Source: a virus
Virus record (IMG/VR): IMGVR_UViG_3300037847_002635
Coordinates: 1 to 31,388 of that record
Strand: one strand, 5' to 3'
Length of the DNA: 31,388 nt
This document shows, piece by piece, positions 1-13,733 of the stretch. Each line of letters starts with the position of its first letter. The first letter of the stretch is position 1. The notes below the pieces were generated by a model, which saw only the letters and a list, made by a program, of their open reading frames with translations, ran no database searches and was not told the DNA's origin. Both the position numbers and the translations under genes were made by a program.

Positions 1-128
1 AATGGTAGATGTTAAAAAAATACTTGCACATTTAAATGAAGTATTTGAAAAGAAAAATGACCTTATACCTACTTTTAGTTTACATGGTAAAGAGTATGGT
101 TTTATACCTTCATTAGATGAAATGACTT
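1..128. repeat. Left copy of the near-identical end repeat
   Basis: These bases reappear at 31261-31388. The first 77 positions are identical. The copies differ at window positions 78, 83, 94 and 110 (31338, 31343, 31354 and 31370 in the other copy). The repeat lies inside a coding frame that continues across the junction, so it marks the closing point of a circular or circularly permuted genome rather than a separate element. Three of the four differences change the amino acid, which suggests two strain variants joined in assembly. Confidence 0.9.
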
Positions 129-493
129 TAGGGGAGTACATTGATTTAGATGAAACTATGACTGACTGGGAAAAGATGCACAAAGCTATGGGGGTTTTAT
201 ATAGACCAGTTATTTACAAAAAAGGTAGCAGGTATAAGATAGAAGAATATACAGGTGCAGAAAATAATGAGAAGTTTAAAGATATGCCATTAAACATAGT
301 TATGGGTGCATTAGTTTTTTTTTGGAATTTAAACAACGAATTACTACAAACTACCCTGAACTATTTGAAGAAGGAAACGAGGGAAACGAACATGGAAGCA
401 CACAGAATTTTGCAAGAAAGTGGGGGTGGTATTCAAGCATCTATGGACTTACTAAAGGGGATGTTTCCAAATATGACAGTATCACTAAATTAA
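2..493 (+). CDS. Tail assembly chaperone, 3' part of a gene split by the window ends
   Basis: This frame is the continuation of the frame that starts at ATG 31094; the ATG at position 2 is codon 57 of a 219-residue protein. The sequence is soluble, helical and lacks membrane segments. Its tail-gene position and the overlapping -1 frame (322-579) match the G/GT tail chaperone arrangement of siphoviruses, in which a short and a frameshift-extended form bind the tape measure during tail assembly. The terminal part after residue 107 of the window frame (VFFWNLNNELL and following) lies in a region read in two frames. The function is inferred from architecture; the short form could instead be a neck protein. 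Confidence 0.6.
   Translation: MVDVKKILAHLNEVFEKKNDLIPTFSLHGKEYGFIPSLDEMTLGEYIDLDETMTDWEKMHKAMGVLYRPVIYKKGSRYKIEEYTGAENNEKFKDMPLNIVMGALVFFWNLNNELLQTTLNYLKKETRETNMEAHRILQESGGGIQASMDLLKGMFPNMTVSLN
316..334 (+). other. Candidate -1 ribosomal frameshift site
   Basis: A run of nine T (315-323) contains the heptamer T TTT TTT (316-322) exactly in the X XXY YYZ phase of the upstream frame. Six bases later the heptamer T TTA AAC (328-334) is also in that phase. Slipping back by one base at either site enters the frame that ends at 579. That frame has no ATG of its own before its conserved part, so translation has to enter it by slippage or from TTG 322. Confidence 0.65.
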
Positions 494-579
494 ATGTACA
501 CCAATGTTTAATGTTTTTGGCATTTGAAAAAGAAAAAGTACAATTAGAAAGACAGCAAATAAAAAGTAAACAAAGATGA
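322..579 (+). CDS. -1 frame extension of the tail assembly chaperone (T-like part)
   Basis: This is an 85-residue frame, shifted -1 relative to the chaperone frame and overlapping it by 172 nt. Its C-terminal half (WGWYSSIYGL, then TKLNVHQCLMFLAFEKEK) resembles conserved proteins of Bacteroidetes phages as far as I can recall. It has no ATG near its start. Fused through the T run it would give a product of about 248 residues including the 56 residues encoded at 31094-31261. The overlap region uses codons rare in this genome (ACG in one frame; GGA, TCC and ATC in the other), as expected where two frames are both constrained. Its stop overlaps the next start (576) by 4 nt. Confidence 0.6.
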   Translation: MEFKQRITTNYPELFEEGNEGNEHGSTQNFARKWGWYSSIYGLTKGDVSKYDSITKLNVHQCLMFLAFEKEKVQLERQQIKSKQR

Positions 580-1031
580 CAAAGTTTTACGATGTACTGG
601 AAAAAATAAAAACAAAGCTGATAGCAGAACCATTTTGTAATACAGTAAGCTATGGTAGTTTAGATGATATAGATTTAAACAAACAAAGTATATTCCCTTT
701 ATCACATATAATAGTAAATAACTGTAACGTAGCCACAAACACATTAACATTTAATATTAGTGTACTTGCAATGGATATTGTAGATGAAAGTAAAAAAGAA
801 ACTACAGATATATTTGTAGGTAACGATAATGAACAAGATGTATTAAATACCCAATTATCTATACTTAATAGATTAATGGCATTATTACAAAGGGGTGATC
901 TATATACAGAAGGTTATCAAGTAGAAGGTCAGGTAGGGTGTGAACCATTTGTGGACAGGTTTGAAAACAAACTTGCAGGATGGGTAGCTACATTTGATTT
1001 AATTGTACAAAACGATATGACAACATGCTAA
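576..1031 (+). CDS. Putative tail terminator or completion protein
   Basis: A 151-residue soluble protein. The ATG overlaps the stop of the chaperone extension, and its end overlaps the next gene by 7 nt, so the genes are translationally coupled. The block FPLSHIIVNNCNV, followed by LAMDIVDESKKE and a NDNEQDVLNTQLSILNRL segment, is of a type I recognise from flavobacterial phage structural clusters, where it remains uncharacterised. Size and place between the chaperone and a gp10-like protein fit a tail terminator. The specific role is inferred from position. Confidence 0.5.
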   Translation: MTKFYDVLEKIKTKLIAEPFCNTVSYGSLDDIDLNKQSIFPLSHIIVNNCNVATNTLTFNISVLAMDIVDESKKETTDIFVGNDNEQDVLNTQLSILNRLMALLQRGDLYTEGYQVEGQVGCEPFVDRFENKLAGWVATFDLIVQNDMTTC

Positions 1032-1570
1032 CAAAAGGGAAAAAAGCAAGAACAGCTTTAGATAAATTTAGAAGGTTTGTAGTACAAGAAAGTAAAAACA
1101 ATCTTAAAAAACAAAACAAAAACGTAACAAGTAACTTACTTAATAGTATAAGTTCTAAATTAAAAGAAAGTGAAAATAGTTTTAGTTTAGAATTCTTTAT
1201 GGAAGAATATGGATATTACCAAGACAGGGGTGTAAAAGGAAAAACAAGCACATACCCTGAAATAGCAAAATTTGGTACACTTGCAAAATTTGGTAGTGGT
1301 AAAGGTAAAAAAGGTGGTCTTACTGAAGGTATAAAAAATTGGGTAAAAAGAAAAAGATTTCAATTTCAAGATAAAAAAACAAAAAGATTTTTAAGTTATA
1401 ATTCTACAGCATTTCTTATAACAAGGTCAATATGGAACAAAGGGTTAAAACCAAGTTTGTTTTTTACCAAACCTTTTGAAAAGGCATTTAAGCAACTACC
1501 TGAAAAGTTAGTAAATGCTTATGCACTTGAACTTGAAGATTTTATTAAATTTAGTTTAAGCAAAAAATGA
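1025..1570 (+). CDS. HK97 gp10-like head-tail joining / tail completion protein
   Basis: A 181-residue, very basic protein. The N-terminal helix is rich in Lys and Arg (residues 1-40). A middle block EYGYYQDRGVKGK is followed by a Gly/Lys-rich loop and then IKNWVKRKRFQF. The pattern 'YY-x-x-x-G-x-x-x' plus a flexible glycine loop and an amphipathic C-terminal helix is typical of gp10-like neck and tail-completion proteins. It overlaps the upstream gene by 7 nt and the downstream gene by 4 nt. Assignment rests on this pattern and on context. Confidence 0.5.
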   Translation: MLTKGKKARTALDKFRRFVVQESKNNLKKQNKNVTSNLLNSISSKLKESENSFSLEFFMEEYGYYQDRGVKGKTSTYPEIAKFGTLAKFGSGKGKKGGLTEGIKNWVKRKRFQFQDKKTKRFLSYNSTAFLITRSIWNKGLKPSLFFTKPFEKAFKQLPEKLVNAYALELEDFIKFSLSKK

Positions 1571-3186
1571 GTACAAAAATAAATTCAAGAAGCCCATTTT
1601 ACATAACAGCTACTGAACCTACAGTATCAGAAGGTGCATTTAGTTGTAATACAGCAGGACTTGCAAACTTTAGTGTAGAAAGTAATGGTACTATTATAAA
1701 CCCAACAATACTTAAAGGCACAATTATAGCACAAGATCATATAGAGTTTTCACCATTGGGTGCAAGTGATTCAGCAACCCCAAGAACTGTAAACTACACA
1801 ATAAAAATACCTGATAACTTTACAAATACTACAGATGGCACAATAATATGCCCACAAACATTTACACAGTTACCCCCAACTACTTGTGTAGCATCAACTA
1901 ATAATAACATGGCAGTATTTACTACAGGTTCACCTATTGGCAACCTTACAAACGTATCTACAGGTAGTACAGTTTCACTTGGTAGTTTCTTTTCAAATGG
2001 TACAAGTGCAACTATTACAAGCTATGAGGTTTTAAATTATCAAGGTGTAGCAATAGATGCAGTTCTTACAGGTACAGTACCAAACCAAACACTTACTTTT
2101 TCTACTTCATCATCTTGTGTAAGTGGTACATTCAAAGTAAGGGCAAGAAATAGTGTAGATGCCTGTATAACAGATAGTAATGATTTTACAGTAGCTTCAG
2201 CATGTACAAAATCTTTACATTGTACAACACAAGATGCTACTACAGATGCAATAGCTTTAACAGGTGGTGCAGTAAGTTCTACAGGGGTAGTATCAATTCC
2301 TATTTATAGTGTGGGTGATTTAACAAGAGTAAACATAAAAACTATAGCAGGGGTATCGAACACTACAGATATAACAAGTGATGTAAGTGCAGGTAATGCA
2401 GTATCAGCTTTAAATAACACTACAGGTTCAAATAGGGAAATAGTATTAACATTTAGGTTTGAAGTACCATCAGGTTATAGTAATGCAGGTGCTTTTTTAG
2501 ATTGTGATGATACATTTGACCAACCTGCAACAACCACACCTGAACTTGTTTGTACAGATGATATTATAAGCTATCATGGTTTTAGAATTACTACAAATGG
2601 TGGAATAGAAAAAGGTAGAGTAGATGTAAATGGGGTAACTGCTGCACTTATAAGAACTACTACAGACCAAAGTGATGGTTTAGGTGGATTCAAAAGTTCT
2701 TTTGATACTGTAACTACAGCCCAACCAAGAACAATAAAAATATCTTTTATAGTACCAAGTGGTTTTAGTAATACTGGGCAAATATTAAATGCAAGTAATG
2801 GAGGGTGTGATGTTTCAGGATTTACCCAACCCCCAATAAGTAACCCTTGTGATATTACACACCCAAACTTTCTTTTGTCTGTAGATTCTTTTAATGCGAA
2901 AAATGGTTTTTGTGATAGGGCTGAACCTTATCCAATAAACAATTCAGTAACTATAAACAGTTCAGATACTTCAGAAAGTAGTATAGTAGAAGGTAATATT
3001 GTATGTCATAATGGAAGCACACTAAATGGTGGTAATGAATATTTTGCTGTATCAGCCACAGGTGGTAGGGCAGGTAAAACTACTGGTACATTTATAGTAA
3101 TTAGAATAGATGAAAATGGTGTAATAACTGACATTGATAGAAAAATAAATTGTGGTAGTGATATAGGATTTGATAATGTAATATAG
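1567..3186 (+). CDS. Large repetitive tail structural protein with Ig-like beta repeats
   Basis: A 539-residue beta-rich protein with no enzymatic motif. At least three homologous units are visible, each ending in a strand pair of the form R-x-I/V-x-x-x-F/I-x-V/I-P-S/D-G/N-F/Y-S/T-N followed by a Cys-containing loop and F-x-Q-P. They lie at about residues 78-100, 290-325 and 390-425. Regularly spaced cysteines accompany each unit. Ser, Thr and Asn are very frequent. This fits an exposed tail or fibre component. CpG is almost absent (three in the whole gene). The ATG overlaps the previous stop by 4 nt. Confidence 0.55.
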   Translation: MSTKINSRSPFYITATEPTVSEGAFSCNTAGLANFSVESNGTIINPTILKGTIIAQDHIEFSPLGASDSATPRTVNYTIKIPDNFTNTTDGTIICPQTFTQLPPTTCVASTNNNMAVFTTGSPIGNLTNVSTGSTVSLGSFFSNGTSATITSYEVLNYQGVAIDAVLTGTVPNQTLTFSTSSSCVSGTFKVRARNSVDACITDSNDFTVASACTKSLHCTTQDATTDAIALTGGAVSSTGVVSIPIYSVGDLTRVNIKTIAGVSNTTDITSDVSAGNAVSALNNTTGSNREIVLTFRFEVPSGYSNAGAFLDCDDTFDQPATTTPELVCTDDIISYHGFRITTNGGIEKGRVDVNGVTAALIRTTTDQSDGLGGFKSSFDTVTTAQPRTIKISFIVPSGFSNTGQILNASNGGCDVSGFTQPPISNPCDITHPNFLLSVDSFNAKNGFCDRAEPYPINNSVTINSSDTSESSIVEGNIVCHNGSTLNGGNEYFAVSATGGRAGKTTGTFIVIRIDENGVITDIDRKINCGSDIGFDNVI

Positions 3187-3187
3187 T

Positions 3188-4177
3188 ATGGCTTTAAAAA
3201 GTGCAAGATTAGAAATTTATATATATAGTGGTACAGCAGGTAGCTATACTTCAAGCGATCTAAAATATACTTTAGATAAAGATAGGATTACAAGCCAAAG
3301 TAATATAATTTTTGAAATAGGTAATTTAGTAAGGGATTATATTACCCATGATTTTAATAACGATTATGCAAGTGTTACTAAATGGGTTACTGTAGTTAAA
3401 AGATTATTTGATTCTACTACAAGTTTAGAATTTACAAGTGGTTCACCAGTAACTACTAACTTTTTAGCGTTAGATGGGTTTGGTACTTTTGAAGATGAAA
3501 TAAACCCCCAACTATCTACCAATGCTTTAATATCAGCAGACAATATATATTTACCTGAAAATACAGCAGGTAAGTTACCAATATTTGCAGAAGGTGTAGG
3601 TAAGGTTGTAATAGATAGTAGCACAACACAAATAACAGATAGTGGTAATACTAACCAAAAAATACAATACATAACCATACCTGCTAACACAAGCACAATA
3701 CAAGTATTTGATACAGATGATTCAACTGTAAGAAAAACAATTACAGTAAACAACGTATGTGAACCTAAATACACTTCTTATAAGGTAACATTTGTAAATA
3801 AGTTTGGTGCTTATGAAGATTTATATTTTTTCAAAAAAACTACAGAAACTTTTACAGTATCAGATGAAACACACAAAACAAATAATATAGATGTATCAAC
3901 TGTTACTTACCCAACTTACAAAGGACAACAGCAAAGGTATAACGTAAATGCTATTACAAACTTACAAATGAATACAGGGTTTATAAAAGAAGATGCAACT
4001 AAAACTATAGAAGAATTATTTTTAAGTGAAAATGTATATATAAGGTTTGAAGGTAAAACATTACCTATAATACCAAGAAGTAAATCATTTTTACACAAAA
4101 CAAGTTTGAATGATAAACTAATAAATTATACAGTAGATTTTGAATTTGCATTTAATCTTATAAACAATGTTAGGTAA
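3188..4177 (+). CDS. Tail structural protein (distal-tail or tip component, uncertain)
   Basis: A 329-residue protein with a beta-rich N-terminal half and a conserved-looking block around residues 195-225 (CEPKYTSYKVTFVNKFGAYE, then a Phe/Tyr-rich strand). I recognise this block from flavobacterial phage tail clusters without a known function. It starts two bases after the previous stop and overlaps the next start by 1 nt, so it belongs to the same operon. Order between the repetitive tail protein and the 737-residue tail protein suggests a tail tip location. No enzymatic motif is visible. Confidence 0.5.
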   Translation: MALKSARLEIYIYSGTAGSYTSSDLKYTLDKDRITSQSNIIFEIGNLVRDYITHDFNNDYASVTKWVTVVKRLFDSTTSLEFTSGSPVTTNFLALDGFGTFEDEINPQLSTNALISADNIYLPENTAGKLPIFAEGVGKVVIDSSTTQITDSGNTNQKIQYITIPANTSTIQVFDTDDSTVRKTITVNNVCEPKYTSYKVTFVNKFGAYEDLYFFKKTTETFTVSDETHKTNNIDVSTVTYPTYKGQQQRYNVNAITNLQMNTGFIKEDATKTIEELFLSENVYIRFEGKTLPIIPRSKSFLHKTSLNDKLINYTVDFEFAFNLINNVR

Positions 4178-6390
4178 TGGTTCAACTGCAATTATTTATA
4201 GAGGGAGAACAAGTAGAATTACATGATAATGAAAGTGTAACACTTACACAGTCATTACAAGATATTTTGGATATACAAAAAGTATTTACAGAATTTACAA
4301 GAACTTTTAATGTACCTGCTTCTAAAAATAATAACAAAATATTTAAACACTTTTACAACCCTGATTTATTAGCAATTAATTTTAGCCCAAAGGATAAAAA
4401 GAAAGCAGAATTATTTTTAAACTACAAGCCATTTAAAAAAGGTTTTGTTAAGTACGAAAGTGTACAAATGACAAATAACGAACCTGAAAACTACAGATTA
4501 ACTTTTTTTGGTGAAGGTATAAGTATAAAAGATTTATTTAAAGATGATAAACTACAAGATATTACAGAACTAAACAAGTTTTTAACTTATTCAGGTAGTG
4601 AAGTAATAGCACAAATGCAAGATGGCAGGGATTATAATATAAATGGTGAAGATGTTACAGATGCACTTATATACCCCCTAATAACACATACAGATAGATT
4701 AATATATAATAGTGGTGATGATACAGCAGGTACTAAAAACTTATATGTGGGTAGTAATTCACATGGTTTACTATTTGACCAATTAAAACCTGCATTTAGA
4801 GTACATGGTATTATACTGGCAATACAAAAACATTATAATATAACTTTCAGTAATGATTTTTTTGTAAATACAAATCCTGCTTACTTTAACTTGTACTTAT
4901 GGATGCATAAACAAAAGGGTACTATATTAAATGAAGATAATGCACCTACAGCTTCTTTACATAGTGGTGCTTGGACTGGTATAACTTCTACTTATGATAC
5001 TTTTGATCCTATAAGGGCTTTGAGTTTAAAAGGTAATCCTACACTTGGAGTACCCACAGGTTTTTATGCACAAGGCAACCAATATAAAAACAATAAATTC
5101 TATACAGGTAATAGGTTTATGCAACTTGAAGTAAGTGTAGATGTTGGTGTAGAATACACTATTGAAATACAACAAACATTAGGTGGTAACAGTTCAGTAT
5201 TCCATGAAAGTACACAAACCAGTACAGGTACAGATAAAGTAATAAAATTATCAGACCAAAAGAAGTTAGAAAAAGGTTTTGCATATAGTGTAAGAATAAG
5301 GTGTTCTTTAGGTAAAACATTTACTGTAACCATGAGTATATTTGAAAGCACAAAAACCAATGGTAACTTTGCGAGTGCAACAAACACATTTGATACTACA
5401 GTAACAAAAAATATATTCTTAAAAGATAATATGCCTGATATTAAGGTAATAGATTTTTTAACTGCACTATTTAAGATGTTTAATTTAACTTCTTTCTTTT
5501 CAGATAACACAATAAAAGTACAACCCCTACAGGATTTTTATGCAGCAAGTACAGTAGTACATGATATAACAGAACATTTAGATTTAGAAACTTCAGAAGT
5601 TACCCTACCCATACCATACGATAATATTAGTTTTAATTATGCAGGTAACGAAACATTTTTTACAGCTTTTCATAACCAATATACAGGTATTAAATGGGGG
5701 CATTTAAGCACTTCTATATTAGAAGAAGTTACAAACAAAGAATATAAAATTACACTACCATTTGAACACATGAAGTTCGAAAGGTTAAGAAATGTAACAG
5801 GTAATGCAAACACAGATATACAATGGGGTTGGAGTGTAAACACAGAACAAGAAAGCATACTTACAAAACCCACACTATTTTATGCACATAAAATTACAAG
5901 TGGTACTGCTATAGGAGTTTTAGAAAGTGTAGGGGGTTCAGTAACAAGTGTAAACAATTATTATATACCTTCTAATTTATCTGATCCTACAAGTGATACA
6001 CAAAGCATACATTGGGGTGCAGAACAAAATGAGTACACAAATGCAAGTGCAGATAAAAGTTTATTTGCTACTTACTATAGGGATTACATTACAGAAATAT
6101 TTGATGATAGTAGAAGAATATTTAAGTTCAAAGCATACTTACCAATAAGTATTTTACTGAATTTACAACTAAACGATAGAATAATTATTTTCAATACGTT
6201 ATACAAGATTAACAAGATTGTAACAAATTTTGAAACAGGTTTAAGTAACCTTGAACTGCTAAATGAAATTAGTGATTTTGATGTACCAATAGATAATGTT
6301 ATAAATGATGCAATAAAAACTATAGATAATACTGCACTAACAGCAGATAGTACAATAGTAACAGCAGATAATACAATATTTAGATTATGA
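4177..6390 (+). CDS. Large tail protein, putative tail tip/hub component
   Basis: A 737-residue protein. The N-terminal region (about 1-120) contains VFTEFTRTFNVPASKNN followed by a FKKGFVKY strand, a segment typical of large tail proteins in Bacteroidetes phages. The middle is Ser/Thr/Gly-rich beta material. Near residue 655 PISILLNLQLNDRIIIF begins a conserved-looking C-terminal domain. The last 25 residues are low-complexity with alternating IDNTALTAD-like units. No hydrolase motif is apparent. It is the largest protein of the tail operon and stands before the tape measure gene, which supports a tip or hub role by inference only. Confidence 0.5.
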   Translation: MVQLQLFIEGEQVELHDNESVTLTQSLQDILDIQKVFTEFTRTFNVPASKNNNKIFKHFYNPDLLAINFSPKDKKKAELFLNYKPFKKGFVKYESVQMTNNEPENYRLTFFGEGISIKDLFKDDKLQDITELNKFLTYSGSEVIAQMQDGRDYNINGEDVTDALIYPLITHTDRLIYNSGDDTAGTKNLYVGSNSHGLLFDQLKPAFRVHGIILAIQKHYNITFSNDFFVNTNPAYFNLYLWMHKQKGTILNEDNAPTASLHSGAWTGITSTYDTFDPIRALSLKGNPTLGVPTGFYAQGNQYKNNKFYTGNRFMQLEVSVDVGVEYTIEIQQTLGGNSSVFHESTQTSTGTDKVIKLSDQKKLEKGFAYSVRIRCSLGKTFTVTMSIFESTKTNGNFASATNTFDTTVTKNIFLKDNMPDIKVIDFLTALFKMFNLTSFFSDNTIKVQPLQDFYAASTVVHDITEHLDLETSEVTLPIPYDNISFNYAGNETFFTAFHNQYTGIKWGHLSTSILEEVTNKEYKITLPFEHMKFERLRNVTGNANTDIQWGWSVNTEQESILTKPTLFYAHKITSGTAIGVLESVGGSVTSVNNYYIPSNLSDPTSDTQSIHWGAEQNEYTNASADKSLFATYYRDYITEIFDDSRRIFKFKAYLPISILLNLQLNDRIIIFNTLYKINKIVTNFETGLSNLELLNEISDFDVPIDNVINDAIKTIDNTALTADSTIVTADNTIFRL

Positions 6391-6542
6391 TAGAACACAT
6401 ATTAGATATGTTAGAAATAGCAAAACAAGAAAAGAAGATAGGTAAGTACACTTATATAGCACTTGGTAAGCATAATTTACCTACAAGTTTTGTAGAAGGT
6501 TATAAACAAGTAAAATTAAATATATGGCACAAAAAGCAATAA
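6387..6542 (+). CDS. Small hypothetical protein (51 aa) between tail protein and tape measure
   Basis: ATG 6387 overlaps the stop TGA of the upstream gene (ATGA) and the frame runs 51 codons, overlapping the tape measure start by 19 nt. The protein is basic and helical (MLEIAKQEKKIGKYTYIALG). Start/stop overlap of this kind recurs throughout the genome and supports real translation. It may couple translation into the tape measure gene. I recognise no family. Confidence 0.5.
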   Translation: MIEHILDMLEIAKQEKKIGKYTYIALGKHNLPTSFVEGYKQVKLNIWHKKQ

Positions 6543-8251
6543 TACAGGTAGACATACAAGAAGGTGCAGCGAAGAAAGACCTAAAAGATTTAAAAGAAGG
6601 TATTGATAAGGTCAATAAAGCACAAGTAAACCAAACTAAAGCTACAAAAGAAGCAAGTAAAGAAATGGTTAGTTATGGTGGTGCAGTAGATGGGGTTACT
6701 GGTGGTGCTGTTACAAAGTTTAGAGCATTAGCAGGTGGTATAAAAGCTGCAACTGCTTCTACAAAAGCATTTAGGATTGCCTTGATAGCAACAGGTATAG
6801 GTGCATTTGTTGTTGCTATAGGTACACTTGTTGCCAACCTACAAAATAGTGAAGCAGGATTTAACAGGGTACAAAAACTTCTAAAACAAGTAGGTGTAGT
6901 TGCAGGTAATGTTACTGATATATTCTTTTCATTAGGTACTTCTTTATTTGGTTTAGTTACTGGTGATTTTGAATTGATGACTAAAAGTTTTGATGAAGCT
7001 ACAGATAGAATAAAAAACTTTGGTGAAGAAACTAAAAGGGAAATAAAAATACAGGGTGATCTTGCAGACCAACAAGCTGAACTTACCAAAATAGAAAGAC
7101 AACTAACTGTAGATAGAGCAGAAGCAAATAGAAAAAGAGCAGAGTTATTAGAAAAATCAGCAGATAGAGAAAACTTTACTGCAAAACAAAGAATTAAATT
7201 TTTAGAAGAAGCAGGTAAAATAGATGAAGAAATTACAAATGCTGAAATAAAAGCTGCTGAAATAAGATTAAATTTAAAGGTAGAAGAAAACAAATTAAGT
7301 GAAAGTTCTAAAGAAGATTTAGATGAAGAAGCAAGATTAAAAGCAGAACTTACAAATCTTGAAACAGCAAGGTTAAGAAAACAAAGAGCAGTTACTGCAC
7401 AAATAACTACAGCATTACGAGAAGAACAAGCTGAAAGAAAAGCTATAAGAACCAAAGAGGAAGCAGAACAAAAAGCTGAAGATGCAAAACTACAGGCAAA
7501 GATAGAAAAAGAAAAAGCAGATGAACTTACAAGGTTAGAAGCAATAGATAAAATACAAAAAGAATTTAAACTTAAAAAAGAAGATGAAGAAGCTATACTT
7601 GAAAGTGAAAAGTTAGAATTAGAACAAGCAAGGAAATTACAAGAACTTACAGATTTAGAAGCTACAGAAGAACAAAAAGCAAGTATAATTAGTTTCTTTG
7701 GTGCTAAAATACAAAAGGCAAAAGATGATGAAGCTAAACAAGAAAAAGCAAGGGAAGAATTACTTACTAAACAAAAGTTAGCTCTAACTTCAAATACACT
7801 TGGTCAGGTATCACAGTTATTAGGTGAAAATACAGCAGCAGGTAAAGCAGCAGCAGTAGCACAAGCTATTATAAATTCTTATTTAGGTTTTACAGAAGTG
7901 TTAGCCAATAAAACAACTATACCTGAACCTTTTGGTAGTATACAAAAAGTAGTTAGTGCAGCATCTATACTTGCAAGTGGTATAAAAACTGTAAGGCAAA
8001 TCACAAGTGTTAAAACACCTAATACTGGTGGTGGTGGTATAAGTGTAGGTAGTGCAAGGGGATCAACAGCAGCCCCAACACCTGCAACACCCCCTGCATT
8101 TAATGTAGTAGGTGCATCAGATACTAACCAACTTGCAGAAGCAATAAGTGGTAGGGAACAAAAACCTGTAAAAGCATTTGTGGTTAGTAGTGATGTAAGT
8201 AATGCACAAAGTTTAGATAGGAATATAATTGAAACTGCAAGTATTGGGTAA
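6524..8251 (+). CDS. Tail tape measure protein
   Basis: A 575-residue protein dominated by long coiled coil (about residues 1-50 and 170-430; rich in Glu, Lys, Ala, Arg). A hydrophobic segment is present at about 85-108 (IALIATGIGAFVVAIGTLVA), with a second weaker one near 125-150. The C-terminal part is Gly/Ser/Pro-rich. This combination is characteristic of tape measure proteins, which fill the tail tube and set its length. At roughly 1.5 angstrom per residue it would correspond to a tail of about 85 nm. It overlaps the 51-aa gene upstream. Its stop overlaps the first box of a late promoter candidate at 8250. Confidence 0.85.
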   Translation: MAQKAIIQVDIQEGAAKKDLKDLKEGIDKVNKAQVNQTKATKEASKEMVSYGGAVDGVTGGAVTKFRALAGGIKAATASTKAFRIALIATGIGAFVVAIGTLVANLQNSEAGFNRVQKLLKQVGVVAGNVTDIFFSLGTSLFGLVTGDFELMTKSFDEATDRIKNFGEETKREIKIQGDLADQQAELTKIERQLTVDRAEANRKRAELLEKSADRENFTAKQRIKFLEEAGKIDEEITNAEIKAAEIRLNLKVEENKLSESSKEDLDEEARLKAELTNLETARLRKQRAVTAQITTALREEQAERKAIRTKEEAEQKAEDAKLQAKIEKEKADELTRLEAIDKIQKEFKLKKEDEEAILESEKLELEQARKLQELTDLEATEEQKASIISFFGAKIQKAKDDEAKQEKAREELLTKQKLALTSNTLGQVSQLLGENTAAGKAAAVAQAIINSYLGFTEVLANKTTIPEPFGSIQKVVSAASILASGIKTVRQITSVKTPNTGGGGISVGSARGSTAAPTPATPPAFNVVGASDTNQLAEAISGREQKPVKAFVVSSDVSNAQSLDRNIIETASIG

Positions 8252-8280
8252 CAAAACAAATAAATAATTATTGTTATAAT
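8250..8280 (+). promoter_or_regulatory. Late promoter-like element, copy upstream of the prohead protease gene
   Basis: AACAAA begins at 8250, TTATTG at 8268, and ATG follows at 8281, with TTATAAT between TTATTG and ATG. The 18-nt and 31-nt distances are the same as in the copies at 9789, 13359 and 16273. If TTATTG acts as a -10 box, transcription would start at or close to the ATG. Confidence 0.6.
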
Positions 8281-9636
8281 ATGGATATAATAGAACTTTT
8301 TATAGATGAAGAAGATGAAGTAAGTGGCATTGATGCAGTAAGTTTAGTAGAAAACCCTGCAATAGAAGAAGATTTTATAGCACTTAAATCACAAGAATAT
8401 AAGTTTGCAGAAGTAGACAAAGAAAAACGTATAATTATGGGTGCAGCACTTGTACCTAACAAACCTATTTTAAGAACTAAAAATGATGAACCTTACTATA
8501 TATATTTCAGTAGGGAAACAGTAAGAAAAGCAAGTGAACTATTTTTTATAAGAGGTAACAGTAAAAAATCTACACTTGAACATAAAGTACCCCTTGAAGG
8601 TTTAACAGCAGTTGAAACTTGGATAGTAGAAGATTTAGAAAAAGACAAAAGCAGGTTGTATGATATGGAAGTACCTCTTGGTACATGGATGTTATCAATG
8701 AAAGTTTTAAACGATGATATTTGGAACAACTACATAAAAACAGGAAAAGTAAAAGGTTTTAGTATTGAAGGTTACTTTGCAGACAAGTTAGAAAGACCAA
8801 ATGAACCAAACAAGTTAGAACAAATACAAGAAGAAGAAGCAGAATTTTTATTAGGACAAGTAAAAGCAATAATAAAAAAAGATAAAAGATTAAAGAAGGG
8901 TAAAAGAATTGAATTTGAAAGTTATAGTGATTACCCCAATGCAGTAAAAAACAACGCACAAAGAGGTATAGATTTAAATGCAAAAGTAAATAATAAATGT
9001 GCAACCCAAGTTGGAAAAATTAGAGCTTCACAATTAGCACAAGGTAAACCTATAAGTATAGAAACTATAAAAAGAATGTATAGCTTTTTATCAAGAGCAG
9101 GTGAATACTATGATGAAGGAAATACAGAAGCATGTGGTACTATTAGTTATTTACTTTGGGGTGGTAAAGCAGGTTTAAGATGGAGTGAAAGCAAACTAAA
9201 AGAACTTGAAATGTTAGCTGAAGTTGGTAAAAGAGGTGGTATAAAAAAAAGCCCTAAAGCCCCAAAATCAGATACACCAAACCCCAAACCAAAAGGAGAA
9301 GGTACAGCAAAAGGTGATGCTTCTACAAGTAGGGGTGCAAAAGTATCTAAACAAGATGAAGAAACTTTAAGACAAAAAGCTAAAGAATTTAACGAAAGAT
9401 ATAAAAAGAAACTTGGTTATGGTGCAAACGTAGGAACACTAAAAGCTGTTTTCCAAAGGGGGTTAGGTGCATTTAATGTTTCCCACAGCCCAAAAGTTAA
9501 AAGTGCATCACAATGGAGTTTTGCAAGAGTAAATGCCTTTTTATATTTACTTAAAAATGGTAGACCACAAAACCCAAAGTACACAGGTGATTTTGATTTA
9601 TTACCTGCTAAACACCCTAAAAGCCCTAAAAAATGA
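8281..9636 (+). CDS. Prohead protease (XkdF/S78-like) fused to two C-terminal phage modules
   Basis: A 451-residue protein with three parts. Residues about 45-170 form an XkdF-like protease domain (KRIIMGAALVPNKPI, LEHKVPLEG with His101, KGFSIEGYF with Ser161); His101 and Ser161 are the probable catalytic pair that trims scaffold and capsid during head maturation. Residues about 213-312 carry the phage module beginning SDYPNAVKNNAQRGI, with GKIRASQLAQGKPIS and SYLLWGGKAG. Residues about 355-451 match the DUF5824 pattern (RGLGAFNVSHSP, WSFARVNAFLYLL). The linker is Pro/Lys-rich. The role of the two C-terminal modules is unknown. An ATGA overlap joins it to the next small gene. Confidence 0.75.
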   Translation: MDIIELFIDEEDEVSGIDAVSLVENPAIEEDFIALKSQEYKFAEVDKEKRIIMGAALVPNKPILRTKNDEPYYIYFSRETVRKASELFFIRGNSKKSTLEHKVPLEGLTAVETWIVEDLEKDKSRLYDMEVPLGTWMLSMKVLNDDIWNNYIKTGKVKGFSIEGYFADKLERPNEPNKLEQIQEEEAEFLLGQVKAIIKKDKRLKKGKRIEFESYSDYPNAVKNNAQRGIDLNAKVNNKCATQVGKIRASQLAQGKPISIETIKRMYSFLSRAGEYYDEGNTEACGTISYLLWGGKAGLRWSESKLKELEMLAEVGKRGGIKKSPKAPKSDTPNPKPKGEGTAKGDASTSRGAKVSKQDEETLRQKAKEFNERYKKKLGYGANVGTLKAVFQRGLGAFNVSHSPKVKSASQWSFARVNAFLYLLKNGRPQNPKYTGDFDLLPAKHPKSPKK

Positions 9637-9782
9637 GAACACTATATATAGATGAATACAAACCTTGTAACACAGATGGTAAAAGAGCATGTTTATGCCC
9701 TGATGGTAAAACCTATTCAAGAAGGTGCTGTGATGGCAGTTTTCAAGCACAAGGTATAGGATCAGTTACAGGTACAAGTTAA
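9633..9782 (+). CDS. Cys-rich microprotein (49 aa)
   Basis: ATG 9633 overlaps the protease stop (ATGA). The 49-residue product has five cysteines, including CLCPDGKTYSRRCCDG, and ends in GIGSVTGTS. Paired cysteines suggest metal binding or disulfides. I recall similar small proteins beside capsid genes in Bacteroidetes phages, without known function. It lies inside the protease-scaffold-capsid block, so a capsid-associated role is a reasonable inference. Confidence 0.7.
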   Translation: MRTLYIDEYKPCNTDGKRACLCPDGKTYSRRCCDGSFQAQGIGSVTGTS

Positions 9783-9788
9783 AAATAC

Positions 9789-9819
9789 AACAAACAAAAC
9801 TAAATTTTATTGTAATATT
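9789..9819 (+). promoter_or_regulatory. Late promoter-like element, copy upstream of the scaffold gene
   Basis: AACAAA begins at 9789, TTATTG at 9807, ATG at 9820; TAATATT lies between TTATTG and ATG. Spacing is identical to the copies at 8250, 13359 and 16273. The element sits in the short gap between the Cys-rich microprotein and the scaffold gene. Confidence 0.6.
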
Positions 9820-10455
9820 ATGAAGGCAGATAATATGTTAGGAAAAATCAAAGAACTGTTAAACATTGAAGCACAAGTAGAAAAAGTAGAACTTGAACAA
9901 GCAACATTAGAAAATGGTACTGTTATAGAAAGTGAAAACTTTGAAGCAGGTAGTGAAGTGTTTATAGTAACAGAAGATGAAAAGGTAGCTTTACCTGTTG
10001 GTGAATATACTTTAGAAGATGGTGAAAAATTAATAGTAAAAGAAGAAGGCATTATAGCTTCTATTGGTGCAGAAGAAGAAAAAGAAGAAGAACCTAAAGA
10101 AGTTGCTGCTGAAGAAAATTTAAATACTGATAATATGAAAAATAAAGAAGTTGTACAAGAAGTACAAGAAAATCTTGAAGAAGAAAAGAAAGAAGAAATG
10201 CAGTATGCAACTAAAGAAGAGCTTGCTTCACTTCAAGATGAAATAAAAGAAATCAAAGGAATGATTGAAAAAATGGGTAAAAAAGAGGAAGAAATGAGTG
10301 CTGAAGATAAACCCATAGAAGAAAAAGAAGAACTTTCAGCAGTTGAAAAAGTAAAACATAACCCTGAAGAAGAAGTAAAAACTGAACCTGTATTTATGAG
10401 CAGAAGAGGTGAAACAACTTTTGATAGAGTTATGCGTAGAATTAATAACATATAA
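9820..10455 (+). CDS. Capsid scaffolding-like protein
   Basis: A 211-residue, strongly acidic protein. An N-terminal domain (about 1-90) with short beta strands (GSEVFIVTEDEKVALPVGEY) is followed by a Glu/Lys coiled coil (about 95-165) and a basic C-terminal tip (SRRGETTFDRVMRRINNI). Acidic coiled-coil proteins directly before the major capsid gene are usually scaffolds, and the basic tail would contact the capsid. A second possible start is Met6. It follows the protease gene, which would degrade it during maturation. Family assignment is by composition and position. Confidence 0.65.
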   Translation: MKADNMLGKIKELLNIEAQVEKVELEQATLENGTVIESENFEAGSEVFIVTEDEKVALPVGEYTLEDGEKLIVKEEGIIASIGAEEEKEEEPKEVAAEENLNTDNMKNKEVVQEVQENLEEEKKEEMQYATKEELASLQDEIKEIKGMIEKMGKKEEEMSAEDKPIEEKEELSAVEKVKHNPEEEVKTEPVFMSRRGETTFDRVMRRINNI

Positions 10456-10466
10456 TAATTTAGAAA

Positions 10467-11387
10467 ATGGCAACGAGTATTAGCACCAGTTATAGTGGCG
10501 AATTTGCAGGCAAGTACATCTCTGCAGCACTACTTTCTGGAAAAACTTTAGGTGAAGAAACAATAACAATTTTACCTAATATAGTGCATAAGCAAATTAT
10601 GCAAAAAGTAAGCAGTAATGATATCGTAAAAAATGGAGTTTGCGACTACAGCGACAGTTCAACTTTGACCTTAAGCGAAAGAACGCTGACTTTAGAGGAT
10701 TTTATGGTAAATGTTACTGTATGTAAAAAAGATTTCTTAAACACATGGCAAGCAGCAGAAGTTGGTTTAGGTGGTTTAGGTAGAGAGTTACCAAAATCTT
10801 TTGCAGATTTTATTATAGGACATTTTTCAGCTAAAGTGGCACAAAGAATGGAAACTAATATATGGGCAGGAGTAAATGGTACAGCAGGACAATTTGATGG
10901 ATTTAAAGCACTTCTTGCTGCTGATAGTGATGTAGTAGATGTAACTGCTACAGATGTAAATAGTGGTAATGTTATTACAGAATTAGGTAAAGTTGCTGAT
11001 GCAATTCCAAGTGCTGTTTATGGACAAGAAGATACTACTATATGGGTAGCAACAAATGTTTACAGAAGCTATATTAGAGCATTAGGTGGTTTTGGTGCTT
11101 CAGGATTAGGTGCAGCAGGTTATGAAGATAGAGGTAACAACCAAATCATAACACCTGCATACTTTGATGGTATTAAAATTTCACATGCACAAGGTTTAGG
11201 AACTAACGAAATGGTTGCAGGACAAAAAAGTAACTTTTTCTTTGGTACTTCTTTACTAAATGACTTGAATGAAGTAAAAGTAATTGACATGAGTGATATT
11301 GATGGTTCACAAAATGTTAGATTTGTAATGAGATTTCAAGCAGGTGTTCAATTTGGTGTAGGTTCTGATTGCGTTCAGTACACATAG
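10467..11387 (+). CDS. Major capsid protein (HK97 fold expected)
   Basis: A 306-residue protein located directly after protease and scaffold. It has the features of a HK97-fold capsid protein of the flavobacterial phage type: an N-terminal arm, a helix with SFADFIIGHFSAKVAQRMET, then a A-domain-like region (IWVATNVYRSYIRALGGFG) and a C-terminal strand block (RFVMRFQAGVQFGVGSD). No long pro-region is seen, which is expected when the scaffold is separate. The first 75 codons contain seven CpG in about 230 nt, while the remaining 700 nt contain about two. A terminator follows at 11413. Confidence 0.8.
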   Translation: MATSISTSYSGEFAGKYISAALLSGKTLGEETITILPNIVHKQIMQKVSSNDIVKNGVCDYSDSSTLTLSERTLTLEDFMVNVTVCKKDFLNTWQAAEVGLGGLGRELPKSFADFIIGHFSAKVAQRMETNIWAGVNGTAGQFDGFKALLAADSDVVDVTATDVNSGNVITELGKVADAIPSAVYGQEDTTIWVATNVYRSYIRALGGFGASGLGAAGYEDRGNNQIITPAYFDGIKISHAQGLGTNEMVAGQKSNFFFGTSLLNDLNEVKVIDMSDIDGSQNVRFVMRFQAGVQFGVGSDCVQYT

Positions 11388-11412
11388 AATACTAATTAAT
11401 TAACTATAAAAG

Positions 11413-11448
11413 GGTAGGTAGGGTTTATATCTATCTACCTTTTTTTTT
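11413..11448 (+). terminator. Rho-independent terminator after the capsid gene
   Basis: GGTAGGTAG (11413-11421) pairs with CTATCTACC (11431-11439) as nine base pairs with one G-U, closed by a nine-base loop and followed by nine T. Confidence 0.85.
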
Positions 11449-11462
11449 AAAAATATAATATT

Positions 11463-12011
11463 ATGGCATGTAATTTAACAAGGGGTAGAAAAGAACCATG
11501 TAAAGATGTAGTTGGTGGTATTAAGGGTGTATACTTTTTTGATTTTGGATCAATAACAGCAGGTTTTGATGGTGTTGATACAGATGTAATAGATGATTTA
11601 GGTGCAGTTACTTGTTTTAACTATGAAGTAAAGGGTAACAGTAGTTTTGAACAAACTATAACAAGTTCAAGAGAAAATGGTACAACTTTTTTCGAGCAAA
11701 CACTAAATCTTACACTAAAAAAACTAACAGTACAAGACCATAAAGAGCTTCGTTTAGTGAGTTATGGTAGACCTCATGTGGTAATAGAAGATTACAATGG
11801 TAATGCTTTTATGATGGGGTTAGAGCATGGTGCAGATGTTTCAGGTGGTACTATAGTTACTGGTGCAGCTATGGGTGATTTAAGTGGTTATACACTTACA
11901 CTAACAGCACAAGAACTAAAACCTGCTAACTTTTTAGAAGGTGCAACTTCAGCAAACCCATTTGCAGGGTTATCTAACACAGTAACAGTAACAGAAGGTA
12001 CAAACAGTTAG
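11463..12011 (+). CDS. Major tail tube protein
   Basis: A 182-residue protein. The start MACNLTRGRKEPCKDVVGG followed by IKGVYFFDFG is, from memory, typical of tail tube proteins of Bacteroidetes phages. The remainder is beta-rich (FEQTLNLTLKKLTVQDHKEL, YTLTLTAQELKPANFL), consistent with a tube subunit. It is separately bounded by terminators at 11413 and 12037, as expected for a protein needed in high copy. A TATAAT-like AT-rich stretch lies directly before the ATG, but the full late element is missing here. Confidence 0.75.
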   Translation: MACNLTRGRKEPCKDVVGGIKGVYFFDFGSITAGFDGVDTDVIDDLGAVTCFNYEVKGNSSFEQTITSSRENGTTFFEQTLNLTLKKLTVQDHKELRLVSYGRPHVVIEDYNGNAFMMGLEHGADVSGGTIVTGAAMGDLSGYTLTLTAQELKPANFLEGATSANPFAGLSNTVTVTEGTNS

Positions 12012-12036
12012 GATTTGATTTTTTTGTTTTATGGAA

Positions 12037-12063
12037 GGGTGGCAATAGCTGCCCTTTTTTTTT
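12037..12063 (+). terminator. Rho-independent terminator after the tail tube gene
   Basis: GGGTGGC (12037-12043), loop AATA, GCTGCCC (12048-12054), then nine T. Seven pairs including two wobbles. The sequence resembles the hairpins at 12520, 13328 and 30173. Confidence 0.85.
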
Positions 12064-12065
12064 AA

Positions 12066-12095
12066 TGCGAATTTACTGTTCGCATATAGTTCGCA
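12066..12095. promoter_or_regulatory. Clustered TTCGCA repeats, candidate operator
   Basis: TGCGAA (12066-12071) is followed by TTCGCA at 12079-12084 and again at 12090-12095. The first forms an inverted repeat with the second (7-nt gap), and the last two are direct repeats of TTCGCATAT/TTCGCATA type with an 11-nt period, about one helical turn. Three CpG within 30 nt are striking in a genome that almost lacks CpG. A protein-binding site is the best guess. Confidence 0.45.
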
Positions 12096-12212
12096 TATTT
12101 GTATTGTCAATATTGGCATACAATTAATAAGAGGTGTTAAGAGCATCACAAAGTTTTCAATAATATAGATAAATTAAAAAAAGAATTAGTTACAGTAGAA
12201 GATTGTGATAAT

Positions 12213-12497
12213 ATGCTTGAAAAATTAGAAATAGTAGATTTTTTAGTAGGAATAGCAAATGAAGCATATCAAGATGATTTTGTAGAAAGGGCTGAAGAAT
12301 TAGAAATTGTTATAGATAATATTAAAGAAAAATTTAATATACCAAAATTTAGTTCTTTAGGGTATGAAGATGAATGGAAATGGCATTTATGTGATATAAG
12401 AAAAAAATTACTTGAAAAAAGAAAAAATAATCCAATTTACCAACTTGAAAATAATTTTAAAAAATCAATTTTATATGGTGGCTTTTTTAGAAAATAA
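12213..12497 (+). CDS. Hypothetical 94-aa acidic protein (moron-like cassette 1)
   Basis: A soluble, helical 94-residue protein (LEIVDFLVGIANEAYQDDF, then a Glu/Lys-rich helix, C-terminal FKKSILYGGFFRK). I recognise no family. It stands alone between terminators at 12037 and 12520, inserted between tail tube and head genes. The reading frame stays open upstream to 12141 and reads as a plausible helix (DKLKKELVTVEDCDN), but no ATG, GTG or TTG is present there. The ATG at 12213 is therefore the choice, or an unusual start is used. Confidence 0.6.
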   Translation: MLEKLEIVDFLVGIANEAYQDDFVERAEELEIVIDNIKEKFNIPKFSSLGYEDEWKWHLCDIRKKLLEKRKNNPIYQLENNFKKSILYGGFFRK

Positions 12498-12519
12498 GTA
12501 TGTGTGTTTTTAATTTTGG

Positions 12520-12547
12520 GGGTAGCAATAGTGTTACCCTTTTTTTT
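12520..12547 (+). terminator. Rho-independent terminator after moron cassette 1
   Basis: GGGTAGC (12520-12526), loop AATAGT, GTTACCC (12533-12539), then eight T. Seven pairs including one wobble. Confidence 0.85.
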
Positions 12548-12548
12548 A

Positions 12549-12660
12549 TAACATATTGTTACAGATATAACATTTACATATAAAATTGTTACAAAACTAT
12601 ATTTATTTGGTTGTCAACAAGTTATTAACTATATTGTATGTGAACTGTTAAGTTCAGTTC
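12549..12660 (+). promoter_or_regulatory. Promoter with TAACA/TGTTA half-sites before the cysteine-peptidase-like gene
   Basis: A host-type promoter is visible: TTTG (12606-12609), 20 nt, TATATTGT (12630-12637). Upstream lies the perfect dyad TAACA-TAT-TGTTA (12549-12561), with further half-sites TAACA at 12568 and TGTTA at 12587, and a direct repeat ATTGTTACA at 12555 and 12585 (30-nt spacing). In the leader GAACTG (12642-12647) and CAGTTC (12655-12660) form a six-base-pair inverted repeat. The arrangement suggests an individually regulated gene. Confidence 0.5.
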
Positions 12661-12692
12661 TTTGAAATATTGTTTAACTAAATTATTATAAA

Positions 12693-13085
12693 ATGGAAAA
12701 TGATTATATTTATGATGATGGTGGCAGACACCAGTACTTTAGAATGAAGTACAAAAAAGACAGAATTGGTGATTGTGTAGTAAGGGCATTAGCAATAGCT
12801 ACAGGTGAAGATTACCAAGATGTTAGAACAGAACTTTGGGAAACTTCATTTAAAAATGGATACATGCCAAACTCTAATGAAAACTATGAGCAGTTTTTAT
12901 TGAAAAGGGGTTTTATACCTGAAAAAAAGATTAAGGGTTTTAATCTTGGTAGATACCCTGCTTGTCAAGATTGCACTTATGTAGTTAGGTTGTCAAGGCA
13001 TGTGGTATGTTTAGATCAAGGGCTTGTAAGGGATATATGGGATTGCAGGGCTTGGTATCCATATAAAACTTGGAGAAAGCCATAG
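12693..13085 (+). CDS. Papain/C39-like cysteine-peptidase-fold protein (moron-like cassette 2)
   Basis: A 130-residue protein. The motif GDCVVRALAIATG with Cys28 near the N-terminus, SRHVVCLDQG with His103, and DIWDCRAW with Asp114/Asp117 resemble the Cys-His-Asp layout of small papain-like or C39-like peptidase-fold proteins common in phages. Four further cysteines (91, 94, 106, 118) could bind metal. It has its own promoter region and its own terminator (13093), and is not part of the neighbouring structural operon. The substrate is unknown. A late accessory role is possible, such as host takeover or anti-defence, but this is only suggested by context. Confidence 0.6.
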   Translation: MENDYIYDDGGRHQYFRMKYKKDRIGDCVVRALAIATGEDYQDVRTELWETSFKNGYMPNSNENYEQFLLKRGFIPEKKIKGFNLGRYPACQDCTYVVRLSRHVVCLDQGLVRDIWDCRAWYPYKTWRKP

Positions 13086-13092
13086 TAGTTAT

Positions 13093-13115
13093 GGGGGTGG
13101 AAACACCCCCTTTTT
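13093..13115 (+). terminator. Rho-independent terminator after moron cassette 2
   Basis: GGGGGTG (13093-13099), GAAA tetraloop, CACCCCC (13104-13110), then five T. Seven perfect pairs. Confidence 0.9.
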
Positions 13116-13139
13116 AAAAATTAACTTAAAATTATAAAA

Positions 13140-13316
13140 ATGAAAAATAAACAAGAAAATAAAAAATTTTGGTTGTATTTAACTGAAGATGAAGTTGAAA
13201 CTGTGATAATTGCATTACAGGAATCAAAATTACCTATAACAAGAGATAATGGCTGGAATGAGGAAAGTCGAAAGGTTGAGGAAAAAATACAACAGGCAAA
13301 ATTTAGACAACGATAG
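13140..13316 (+). CDS. Hypothetical 58-aa protein (moron-like cassette 3)
   Basis: ATG 13140 opens a 58-codon frame ending TAG 13316. The product is charged and helical (FWLYLTEDEVETVIIALQES, then NGWNEESRKVEEKI). The leader is A-rich, as in other early-type genes here. It is bounded by terminators at 13093 and 13328. I recognise no family with confidence. Confidence 0.6.
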   Translation: MKNKQENKKFWLYLTEDEVETVIIALQESKLPITRDNGWNEESRKVEEKIQQAKFRQR

Positions 13317-13327
13317 GTAACCAACAA

Positions 13328-13354
13328 GGGTAGCAGAAATGTTGCCCTTTTTTT
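13328..13354 (+). terminator. Rho-independent terminator after moron cassette 3
   Basis: GGGTAGC (13328-13334), loop AGAAAT, GTTGCCC (13341-13347), then seven T. Seven pairs with two wobbles. Confidence 0.8.
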
Positions 13355-13358
13355 ATTT

Positions 13359-13389
13359 AACAAAATAGAAGTACTTTTATTGTATATAT
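13359..13389 (+). promoter_or_regulatory. Late promoter-like element, copy upstream of the portal operon
   Basis: AACAAA begins at 13359, TTATTG at 13377, ATG at 13390, with TATATAT between TTATTG and ATG. It lies five bases after the T run of a terminator, so a new transcript has to start here for the portal operon to be expressed. Confidence 0.65.
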
Positions 13390-13731
13390 ATGATAGTTTT
13401 ACAAAGTTCAGGTAGTAGCCAAACATTTAGTTTTATTCCAAGAACATACACTTCAGGAAACACTTATACAATTAAGATAAACAACGAAAGCACAAACAAA
13501 GAAGTGTTTAGTCAAACATCTACAAGTTTTACAGAAGTAAATTACTATTACCAGTACAGCAATACTTTTACTTTAGTAGAAGATACTTTTTATACTTTAG
13601 AAATTACAGAAGGTAGTACACTAATTTTTAGAGATAAAATATTTTGCACTAATCAAACAGTAGCAGATTTTACAATAAATCAAAACCAGTACACTACCAA
13701 CACAACAACTAACGAATTTGTATTTATATAA
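13390..13731 (+). CDS. Small virion-type protein (113 aa), Ig-like, upstream of portal
   Basis: A beta-rich 113-residue protein containing the block LIFRDKIFCTNQ near residues 78-89, which I recognise from small proteins preceding portal genes in flavobacterial phages. The C-terminus is Thr/Asn-rich (YTTNTTTNEFVFI). It begins right after a late promoter candidate and stops two bases before the portal start. A head decoration or head fibre role is a plausible inference; no motif proves it. Confidence 0.55.
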   Translation: MIVLQSSGSSQTFSFIPRTYTSGNTYTIKINNESTNKEVFSQTSTSFTEVNYYYQYSNTFTLVEDTFYTLEITEGSTLIFRDKIFCTNQTVADFTINQNQYTTNTTTNEFVFI

Positions 13732-13733
13732 AC

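What the first reader, a model, noticed from the sequence alone, without database searches (positions are those of the whole stretch)
1561..3186. Extreme CpG scarcity across the genome
I counted 3 CpG in 1561-3180, where base composition would give about 35. Counts are similarly low in other genes I checked (about 2 in 16561-17280, about 2 in 25228-25992, about 5 in 22681-23570). Arg is almost always AGA/AGG, and ACG, GCG, CCG and TCG codons are nearly absent. This is stronger than AT-richness alone would produce. Possible causes are avoidance of a host restriction system, or methylation-driven deamination.
Basis: seen in the sequence. Interest (0 to 1): 0.65.

Follow-up and report, generated by a model that had tools for sequence, protein, structure and literature searches.

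The report
Phages that purge CG from DNA
This marine bacteriophage has lost most of its CG letter pairs, and close relatives have lost practically all of them, apparently because something in their bacterial hosts punishes that two-letter sequence.

Summary
The window, a 31.4 kb IMG/VR phage record of flavobacterial type, has 126 CpG where about 702 are expected (rho 0.17), in all codon phases and between genes. The finding's own gene has 3 against 47 expected. A relative whose terminase is 98% identical, record G016 (30,218 b, exact 98-b end repeat, so apparently complete), has 0 CpG against 690 expected. A second lineage, G024, has 2 against 717. Between CpG-free relatives G016 and G025, 1,075 substitutions made no CpG where 68-73 were expected; the same estimate fits CpG-normal relatives (189 seen, 194 expected). 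Loss took whatever route kept the protein: Arg CGN became AGR by transversion, and NCG became NCA or NCT near the normal ratio. This argues for selective avoidance, not deamination. The window's methyltransferase gene was not found in G016. Best explanation: a host-imposed, sequence-specific attack that reads CpG itself. The family also lacks whole tetramers (CATG, GATC, CTAG) phage by phage, as under restriction. No host or enzyme was identified, and 10 text searches showed no report of a CpG-free phage.

The parts
1..31388 (.). Whole window: phage genome with CpG rho 0.17 (126 of about 702 expected)
   Evidence: G000 is a virus record of 31388 bases
1561..3186 (+). The stretch of the finding (539-aa gene 1567-3186, function not determined): 3 CpG, 47.1 expected
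28723..29889 (+). Terminase large subunit; 98% identical in the CpG-free relative G016, 75% in CpG-normal L010, 68-69% in near-CpG-free G024 and G027
   Evidence: Pfam Terminase_3/3C
10467..11387 (+). Putative major capsid protein (name inferred from gene order; PHROG 11320 is of unknown function); nearest isolate kin Nonlabens phages P12024L/S, 31%
13734..15707 (+). Portal protein, used for the tree of CpG-free and CpG-normal relatives
   Evidence: phrog_33693
17871..19985 (+). 704-aa gene lying in the CpG-richest patch (18001-20000: 29 CpG of 126), possibly a later arrival (inference)
26955..28097 (+). Insert of two genes: HNH_3 protein (26955-27464) and C5-cytosine methyltransferase-like protein (27468-28097, phrog_757); absent with a clean join in L005 and not found in the CpG-free record G016

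Best explanation
The CpG scarcity is selective avoidance. These phages infect marine Bacteroidota (host group inferred) in which some defence recognises the CpG dinucleotide itself, or a set of motifs that together cover every NCGN context, and destroys or disables phage genomes that carry it. Lineages under full pressure (G016/G025 in the window's clade; G024/L461/L462 in another) have purged every or nearly every CpG by whatever mutation keeps the protein. The window's own lineage is under partial, intermittent or different pressure and keeps about 17%. Shown: the loss, its recency, its recurrence in two clades, the suppression of new CpG, the route of loss, and that the phage methyltransferase is not needed. 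Inferred: that the agent is a host defence acting on double-stranded DNA, and that it reads two bases. It could be a CG-specific restriction-modification system or a restriction system that reads methylated CpG.
For: CpG 0 of 690 expected in G016, 1 of 306 in G025, 2 of 717 in G024, 10 of 297 in G026; L461 2 of 244, L462 0 of 114. G016 has a 98-b exact end repeat and all ten NCGN classes are zero; non-ORF bases of G016 0 of 29.9 expected, of G024 0 of 66. Ongoing suppression: G016-G025 1,075 substitutions, 0 new CpG against 68-73 expected; G024-L461 2 and 0 against 30 and 33; W-G006 47 and 41 against 141 and 134; CpG-normal controls G036-G037 189 against 194 and G009-G036 214 against 193. Route: of ancestral CpG sites 0 of 154 kept in G016 and 0 of 171 in G024; at Arg positions AG 13, AA 4, TG 1, AC 1 (G016) and AG 13, AA 3, CA 2, CT 2, TA 1 (G024); at NCG sites CA:CT 10:7 and 13:8, against genome-wide NCA shares of 0.62 and 0.56. 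Precedent in the same family: CATG 0 of 82-95, GATC 0 of 71-93, CTAG 0 of 79-93 expected, different sets in different full-length phages. The portal tree needs 3 changes of the CpG-zero label, 2 forced by supported branches. GAC/GTC and, in other kin, TG/CA are low on both strands, which points to DNA rather than mRNA.
Against: No host and no CpG-reading system was found; two genome-contig scans gave only two distant capsid matches. I recall no restriction enzyme that cuts unmodified CG as a 2-bp site. The window itself keeps 126 CpG. Single transitions make up 65% of CpG losses in G016 against 47% for GpC, and 61% against 34% in G024; CA:CT is 14:3 in W and 17:3 in G028; TpG/CpA is 1.15-1.25 in G016, G024 and G025: all as deamination would also predict. 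Residual CpGs sit in different contexts in different lineages (ACGA in W and G006; GCGG and ACGG, with no NCGA, in a pooled set of G024, G025, G026 and G027), which could mean several longer motifs rather than one dinucleotide. CpG is its own reverse complement and nearly all genes lie on one strand, so RNA-level selection is not excluded for CpG itself. The sequences are metagenome assemblies; reads were not seen.
Confidence: 0.63

Rival explanations
1. Methylation-driven decay: cytosines in CpG are methylated by a host or phage enzyme and deaminate to TpG/CpA, as in vertebrates.
For: TpG/CpA mildly raised (1.18 in W); 54 of 74 aligned W CpGs read TG or CA in G016; transitions make up more of CpG loss than of GpC loss; the window carries a C5-methyltransferase-like gene with relatives at 72 viral loci.
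Against: The methyltransferase was not found in complete G016 nor in G006. Arg CGN sites became AGR or Lys; TG or CA in only 1 of 19 (G016) and 2 of 21 (G024); NCG became NCT about as often as background there. Arg content is unchanged at 3.2%. A mutation-only steady state with 0 of 690 would need loss over 200 times faster than random gain (my arithmetic).
Confidence: 0.1
2. Several ordinary restriction systems with longer CG-containing sites (CCGG, GCGC, CGCG, TCGA, ACGT and non-palindromic ones) act together, so that no system reads CpG as such.
For: CCGG, CGCG and GCGC are at or near zero in most family members, also in CpG-normal G009 (CCGG 0, CGCG 0, GCGC 1); residual contexts differ between lineages.
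Against: In G016 the non-palindromic contexts are emptied too: ACGA/TCGT 0 of 170, ACGG/CCGT 0 of 77, GCGA/TCGC 0 of 77 expected; ten contexts, in two lineages, would each need their own system.
Confidence: 0.17
3. RNA-level selection: a host factor recognises CpG in phage mRNA, in the manner of vertebrate ZAP.
For: Nearly all genes are on one strand; CpG cannot distinguish strands.
Against: Other avoided words in the family are avoided on both strands (GAC 0.15 and GTC 0.08 in G024; TG 0.41 and CA 0.23 at codon junctions in L468); no bacterial precedent known to me.
Confidence: 0.05
4. A phage-encoded nuclease cuts host DNA at CpG, so that the phage must be CpG-free.
For: G016 and G025 share a small gene (G016 29214-29663), PD-(D/E)XK-like by eye, with no match in W or G006.
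Against: It is 99% identical in the record of L253 (CpG 0.19) and 84% in L082 (CpG 0.15), which are not CpG-free; it has no Pfam or PHROG match; G024 has no homologue.
Confidence: 0.04

Closest known systems
Restriction-site avoidance by phages of Type II restriction-modification hosts (Rusinov et al. 2018, PMC6286503; start of abstract in the listing and a term search of the text seen)
   Same: Short words vanish from phage DNA, differently in different phages; this family shows zero CATG, GATC, CTAG or CCGG.
   Different: The word is a dinucleotide, about 690 expected copies are gone, and no cognate system is known here. The term search of that paper found no 'CpG' and no 'dinucleotide'.
Modification-dependent restriction reading m5CpG (McrA, MspJI family, PsuGI; passages and reference titles of PMC12707154 seen)
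   Same: Known bacterial systems can recognise a CpG-sized methylated target.
   Different: Such systems need methylated CpG; no methylation evidence is available for these phages.
CpG decay in vertebrate genomes by m5C deamination (recalled)
   Same: Low CpG, some TpG/CpA gain.
   Different: Here the route of loss includes transversions near background proportion, and loss is complete in some lineages.
CpG avoidance by vertebrate RNA viruses under ZAP (recalled; PMC8844275 seen in a search listing only)
   Same: Would also be a host sensor reading CpG.
   Different: DNA phage of bacteria; other avoided words in the family are strand-symmetric.

Membership tests
Restriction-site avoidance | Target word absent or nearly so against expectation | tested here: met
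   G016 0 of 690, G024 2 of 717; the window only partly (126 of 702)
Restriction-site avoidance | Avoidance independent of codon position and present outside genes | tested here: met
   W; G016, G024 non-ORF bases
Restriction-site avoidance | New sites removed after they arise | tested here: met
   with CpG-normal pairs as control
Restriction-site avoidance | Host carries the cognate restriction system | tested here: inconclusive
   host not found
Methylation-driven CpG decay | Losses are C-to-T or G-to-A, also where transversions are equally open | tested here: not met
   with background (G016, G024); W and G028 lean more to transitions at NCG
Methylation-driven CpG decay | A CpG methyltransferase is present | tested here: inconclusive
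   phage gene not found in G016 and G006; host unknown
m5CpG-dependent (Type IV) restriction | CpG in the phage is methylated | not testable with these tools
   no modification data
RNA-level (ZAP-like) CpG avoidance | Avoidance confined to the transcribed strand | not testable with these tools
   CpG is palindromic; other words are strand-symmetric

The most novel reading that the evidence does not exclude
Some marine Bacteroidota carry a defence that recognises the bare dinucleotide CpG, a far shorter target than known restriction systems use, in phage DNA, strong enough to have driven at least two phage lineages to complete or near-complete genome-wide absence of CpG; sister phages avoid other two- or three-base words (TpG/CpA, GAC/GTC), so that a family of defences reading very short words exists.
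Probability: 0.35. Interest if true: 0.92.

Novelty: new variant of a known kind. Interest (0 to 1): 0.74.

Why it matters
A natural, apparently complete double-stranded DNA phage genome of 30 kb with no CpG shows that a dinucleotide can be removed outright without changing Arg content. It points to a host defence with an extremely short target, it makes a testable prediction about which bacteria those hosts are, and the CpG-free, CpG-low and CpG-normal relatives (terminase 68-98% identical to the window's) form a natural experiment for separating avoidance from deamination. If a CpG-reading bacterial system exists, it would be a new kind of defence and a useful reagent.

Tried and rejected
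Deamination as the main cause: rejected on the route of loss. The phage methyltransferase as cause: rejected because it was not found in G016 and G006 and the site is cleanly empty in L005. Phage nuclease as cause: close homologues occur in CpG-containing L253 and L082. Host composition as cause: 18 usable of 20 sampled Bacteroidia stretches have CpG 0.56-1.28 (L445 and L457 gave too little usable sequence and were dropped); these are not known hosts. Host by prophage or bin: the terminase alignment gave 0 of 47 candidates confirmed; the capsid alignment gave 2 of 55, one a 9.7 kb contig in a Bacteroidia bin and one in a Woesearchaeota bin; class search 11 of 395 genomes, mostly distant; family search 2 of 64, both already seen. 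Codon usage alone: rejected, depletion also lies across codon junctions and between genes. PDB sequence search of the methyltransferase: no match. W to G016 and G006 to G016 each show one 'new CpG' although G016 has none: it comes from joining local alignments or gaps. Literature: all 10 searches showed no report of a CpG-free phage in this open-access library; subscription papers are not covered.

Full report
What the window is. The window is a 31,388-base IMG/VR virus record. It has a large terminase (Pfam), portal and primase/helicase-type PHROG matches, a lambda NinG-like gene, an M15 peptidase and a DUF3127 protein, and no tRNA genes. Nearly all plausible genes lie on the + strand. The terminase is 47% identical to that of Flavobacterium psychrophilum phages, and the putative capsid protein is 31% identical to Nonlabens phages P12024L/S, isolated on a marine flavobacterium. 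The host group, marine Bacteroidota, is inferred from this.

The observation. CpG is 126 against about 702 (rho 0.17-0.18); 500 shuffles never went below 635. The finding's own stretch has 3 against 47. The depletion is in all codon phases and in intergenic bases. A protein-preserving codon model gives 494 where 116 are seen; shuffling synonymous codons with usage kept gives 260, so the effect goes beyond codon usage.

It is recent and lineage-specific. Relatives were collected with terminase, methyltransferase, capsid, helicase, tail, two portal and one nuclease query (8 of 8 viral scans; five of the eight were cut at the best 80). Of 407 loci held, which include overlapping pieces and duplicates of one record, 55 had rho under 0.2 and 79 under 0.35; the range was 0 to 1.75. 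Contigs with terminase 97-99% identical to the window have 0-0.17; those at 71-75% have 1.06-1.21. The window's residual CpGs fall on CpG in CpG-normal kin more often than its TpGs do (G036 17 of 37 against 89 of 761; G009 19 of 42 against 135 of 661), so they look like remnants and the direction is loss.

CpG-free relatives. G016 (record behind L017, 30,218 b) has 0 CpG, 690 expected. Its ends share an exact 98-b repeat, its circular join makes no CpG, and its genes are open and homologous to the window's. G025 has 1 of 306, G024 2 of 717, G026 10 of 297, L461 2 of 244 and L462 0 of 114. They come from different metagenomes, and G012, from the same metagenome as G016, has 225 CpG, so an artefact of one data set is unlikely. 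On a portal tree of 37 rows the CpG-zero label (6 rows) needs 3 changes, 2 of them forced by supported branches, and rows with low or normal CpG lie between the two groups; portals recombine, so this is not a species tree.

CpG is being kept out. With substitution rates taken from each pair and no knowledge of context, the number of new CpGs expected was compared with that seen: G016-G025 0 and 0 against 68 and 73; G024-L461 2 and 0 against 30 and 33; G024-L462 0 against 29; L461-L462 0 against 25; G024-G026 4 against 44; G024-G028 45 against 197; W-G006 47 and 41 against 141 and 134; W-L082 7 against 22; W-L253 21 against 46. For CpG-normal G036-G037 it was 189 against 194 and for G009-G036 214 against 193, so the estimate is calibrated; for the CpG-rich pair L468-L466 it was 55 against 28, an excess. 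Genes found only in G016 among the compared records are CpG-free as well, since the whole record is.

Avoidance, not deamination. Sites that are CpG in at least two of three CpG-normal kin (G036, G037, G009) were followed. In G016 none of 154 is CpG; in G024 none of 171; in W 14 of 152; in G028 10 of 180. At Arg first positions the outcome is mainly AG (Arg kept by transversion): 13 of 19 in G016 and 13 of 21 in G024; TG or CA, the deamination products, 1 of 19 and 2 of 21. At NCG codons CA:CT is 10:7 and 13:8, near the genome-wide NCA shares of 0.62 and 0.56; W and G028 lean more to CA (14:3 and 17:3). At codon junctions TG dominates, as synonymous C-to-T change predicts under either model. 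In all, single transitions make 65% (G016) and 61% (G024) of CpG losses against 47% and 34% of GpC losses; this result leans toward deamination and is told as such. Arg content is 3.2-3.25% in W, G006, G016 and G024 alike.

Not the phage's own enzymes. The window's C5-methyltransferase-like gene is part of a two-gene insert missing from several close kin; a protein search found it in 8 of 23 records, not in G016 or G006. The small nuclease-like gene shared by G016 and G025 is 99% and 84% identical in CpG-containing L253 and L082. L253 is itself mosaic: its last 2.6 kb, 95.2% identical to G016, has 1 CpG, while its middle has up to 15 per kb.

Why a host attack. The same phage family shows textbook restriction avoidance, different from phage to phage: G009 lacks GATC, CCGG, CGCG and GGCC; G036 lacks CATG, CTAG, GATC and CCGG; G031 lacks CATG; W lacks CTAG and GGCC. 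Against that background zero CpG reads as avoidance of a two-base target, because in G016 all ten NCGN classes are empty, including non-palindromic ACGA/TCGT (170 expected). Eight kin of G024 with portals 83-88% identical have CpG 1.03-1.55 and TpG/CpA of only 0.40-0.69; in the four tested, one of which is the largest, TG and CA are both low at codon junctions. GAC/GTC is low on both strands in G024, G027, G028 and W. Strand symmetry of these words speaks for recognition of duplex DNA. For CpG itself the strand test is impossible.

What is not known. No host, no enzyme, no methylation data and no reads. Two genome-contig scans and two genome searches gave no host. Eighteen usable Bacteroidia samples had CpG 0.56-1.28, so a CpG-poor host composition is not indicated, but the true host was not identified. 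Residual CpG contexts differ between lineages, which leaves room for several longer motifs.

Relation to what is known. Avoidance of restriction sites by phages is established (Rusinov et al. 2018, PMC6286503: start of abstract and a term search seen). Systems reading m5CpG exist (PMC12707154: passages and reference titles seen). Ten searches of the open-access library showed no report of a phage genome free of CpG. I therefore file it as a new variant of motif avoidance, with the agent unknown.

Noticed in passing
window 1-128 and 31261-31388: The two ends overlap by 128 b at 96.9% identity (4 mismatches), unlike the exact 98-b end repeat of G016: probably a circular genome assembled from two strains.
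   Followed up: partly
L465-L468, L470, L487, L504, L506: Relatives of G024 (portal 83-88% identical) show the reverse bias: CpG 1.03-1.55 and TpG/CpA 0.40-0.69; in the four tested, low at codon junctions on both strands.
   Followed up: partly
window whole; G024, G026, G027, G028: GAC/GTC (down to 0.07) and, in W and kin, GAG/CTC (about 0.3) are strongly avoided; in W coding-strand TpC is lower than GpA (ATC 0.33, GAT 1.04), which is not fully explained.
   Followed up: partly
window whole: CTAG is absent (0 of 82 expected) while close kin G006 is not on the list of CTAG avoiders: restriction pressure seems to differ between near relatives.
   Followed up: no
window 26955-28097: HNH gene and C5-methyltransferase gene form an insert; the methyltransferase is present in W, L082 and (partly seen) L002, and the insert is absent with a clean join in L005.
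   Followed up: partly
L364-L366, L378, L382, L148: Distantly related marine phages with CpG 0.06-0.12, TpG 1.4-1.6 and TpA about 0.5: a different, more deamination-like signature.
   Followed up: no
L428 10001-10825 (CP070803.1, labelled Woesearchaeota MAG chromosome): A relative of the capsid protein (49%) lies inside a 919 kb contig labelled Woesearchaeota; a phage insertion or a chimeric assembly.
   Followed up: no
L460 16409-18674 (Nonlabens phage P12024L): Annotated 2OG-Fe oxygenase (PF12851) close to a DNA methyltransferase: possible cytosine hypermodification in related phages (inference).
   Followed up: no
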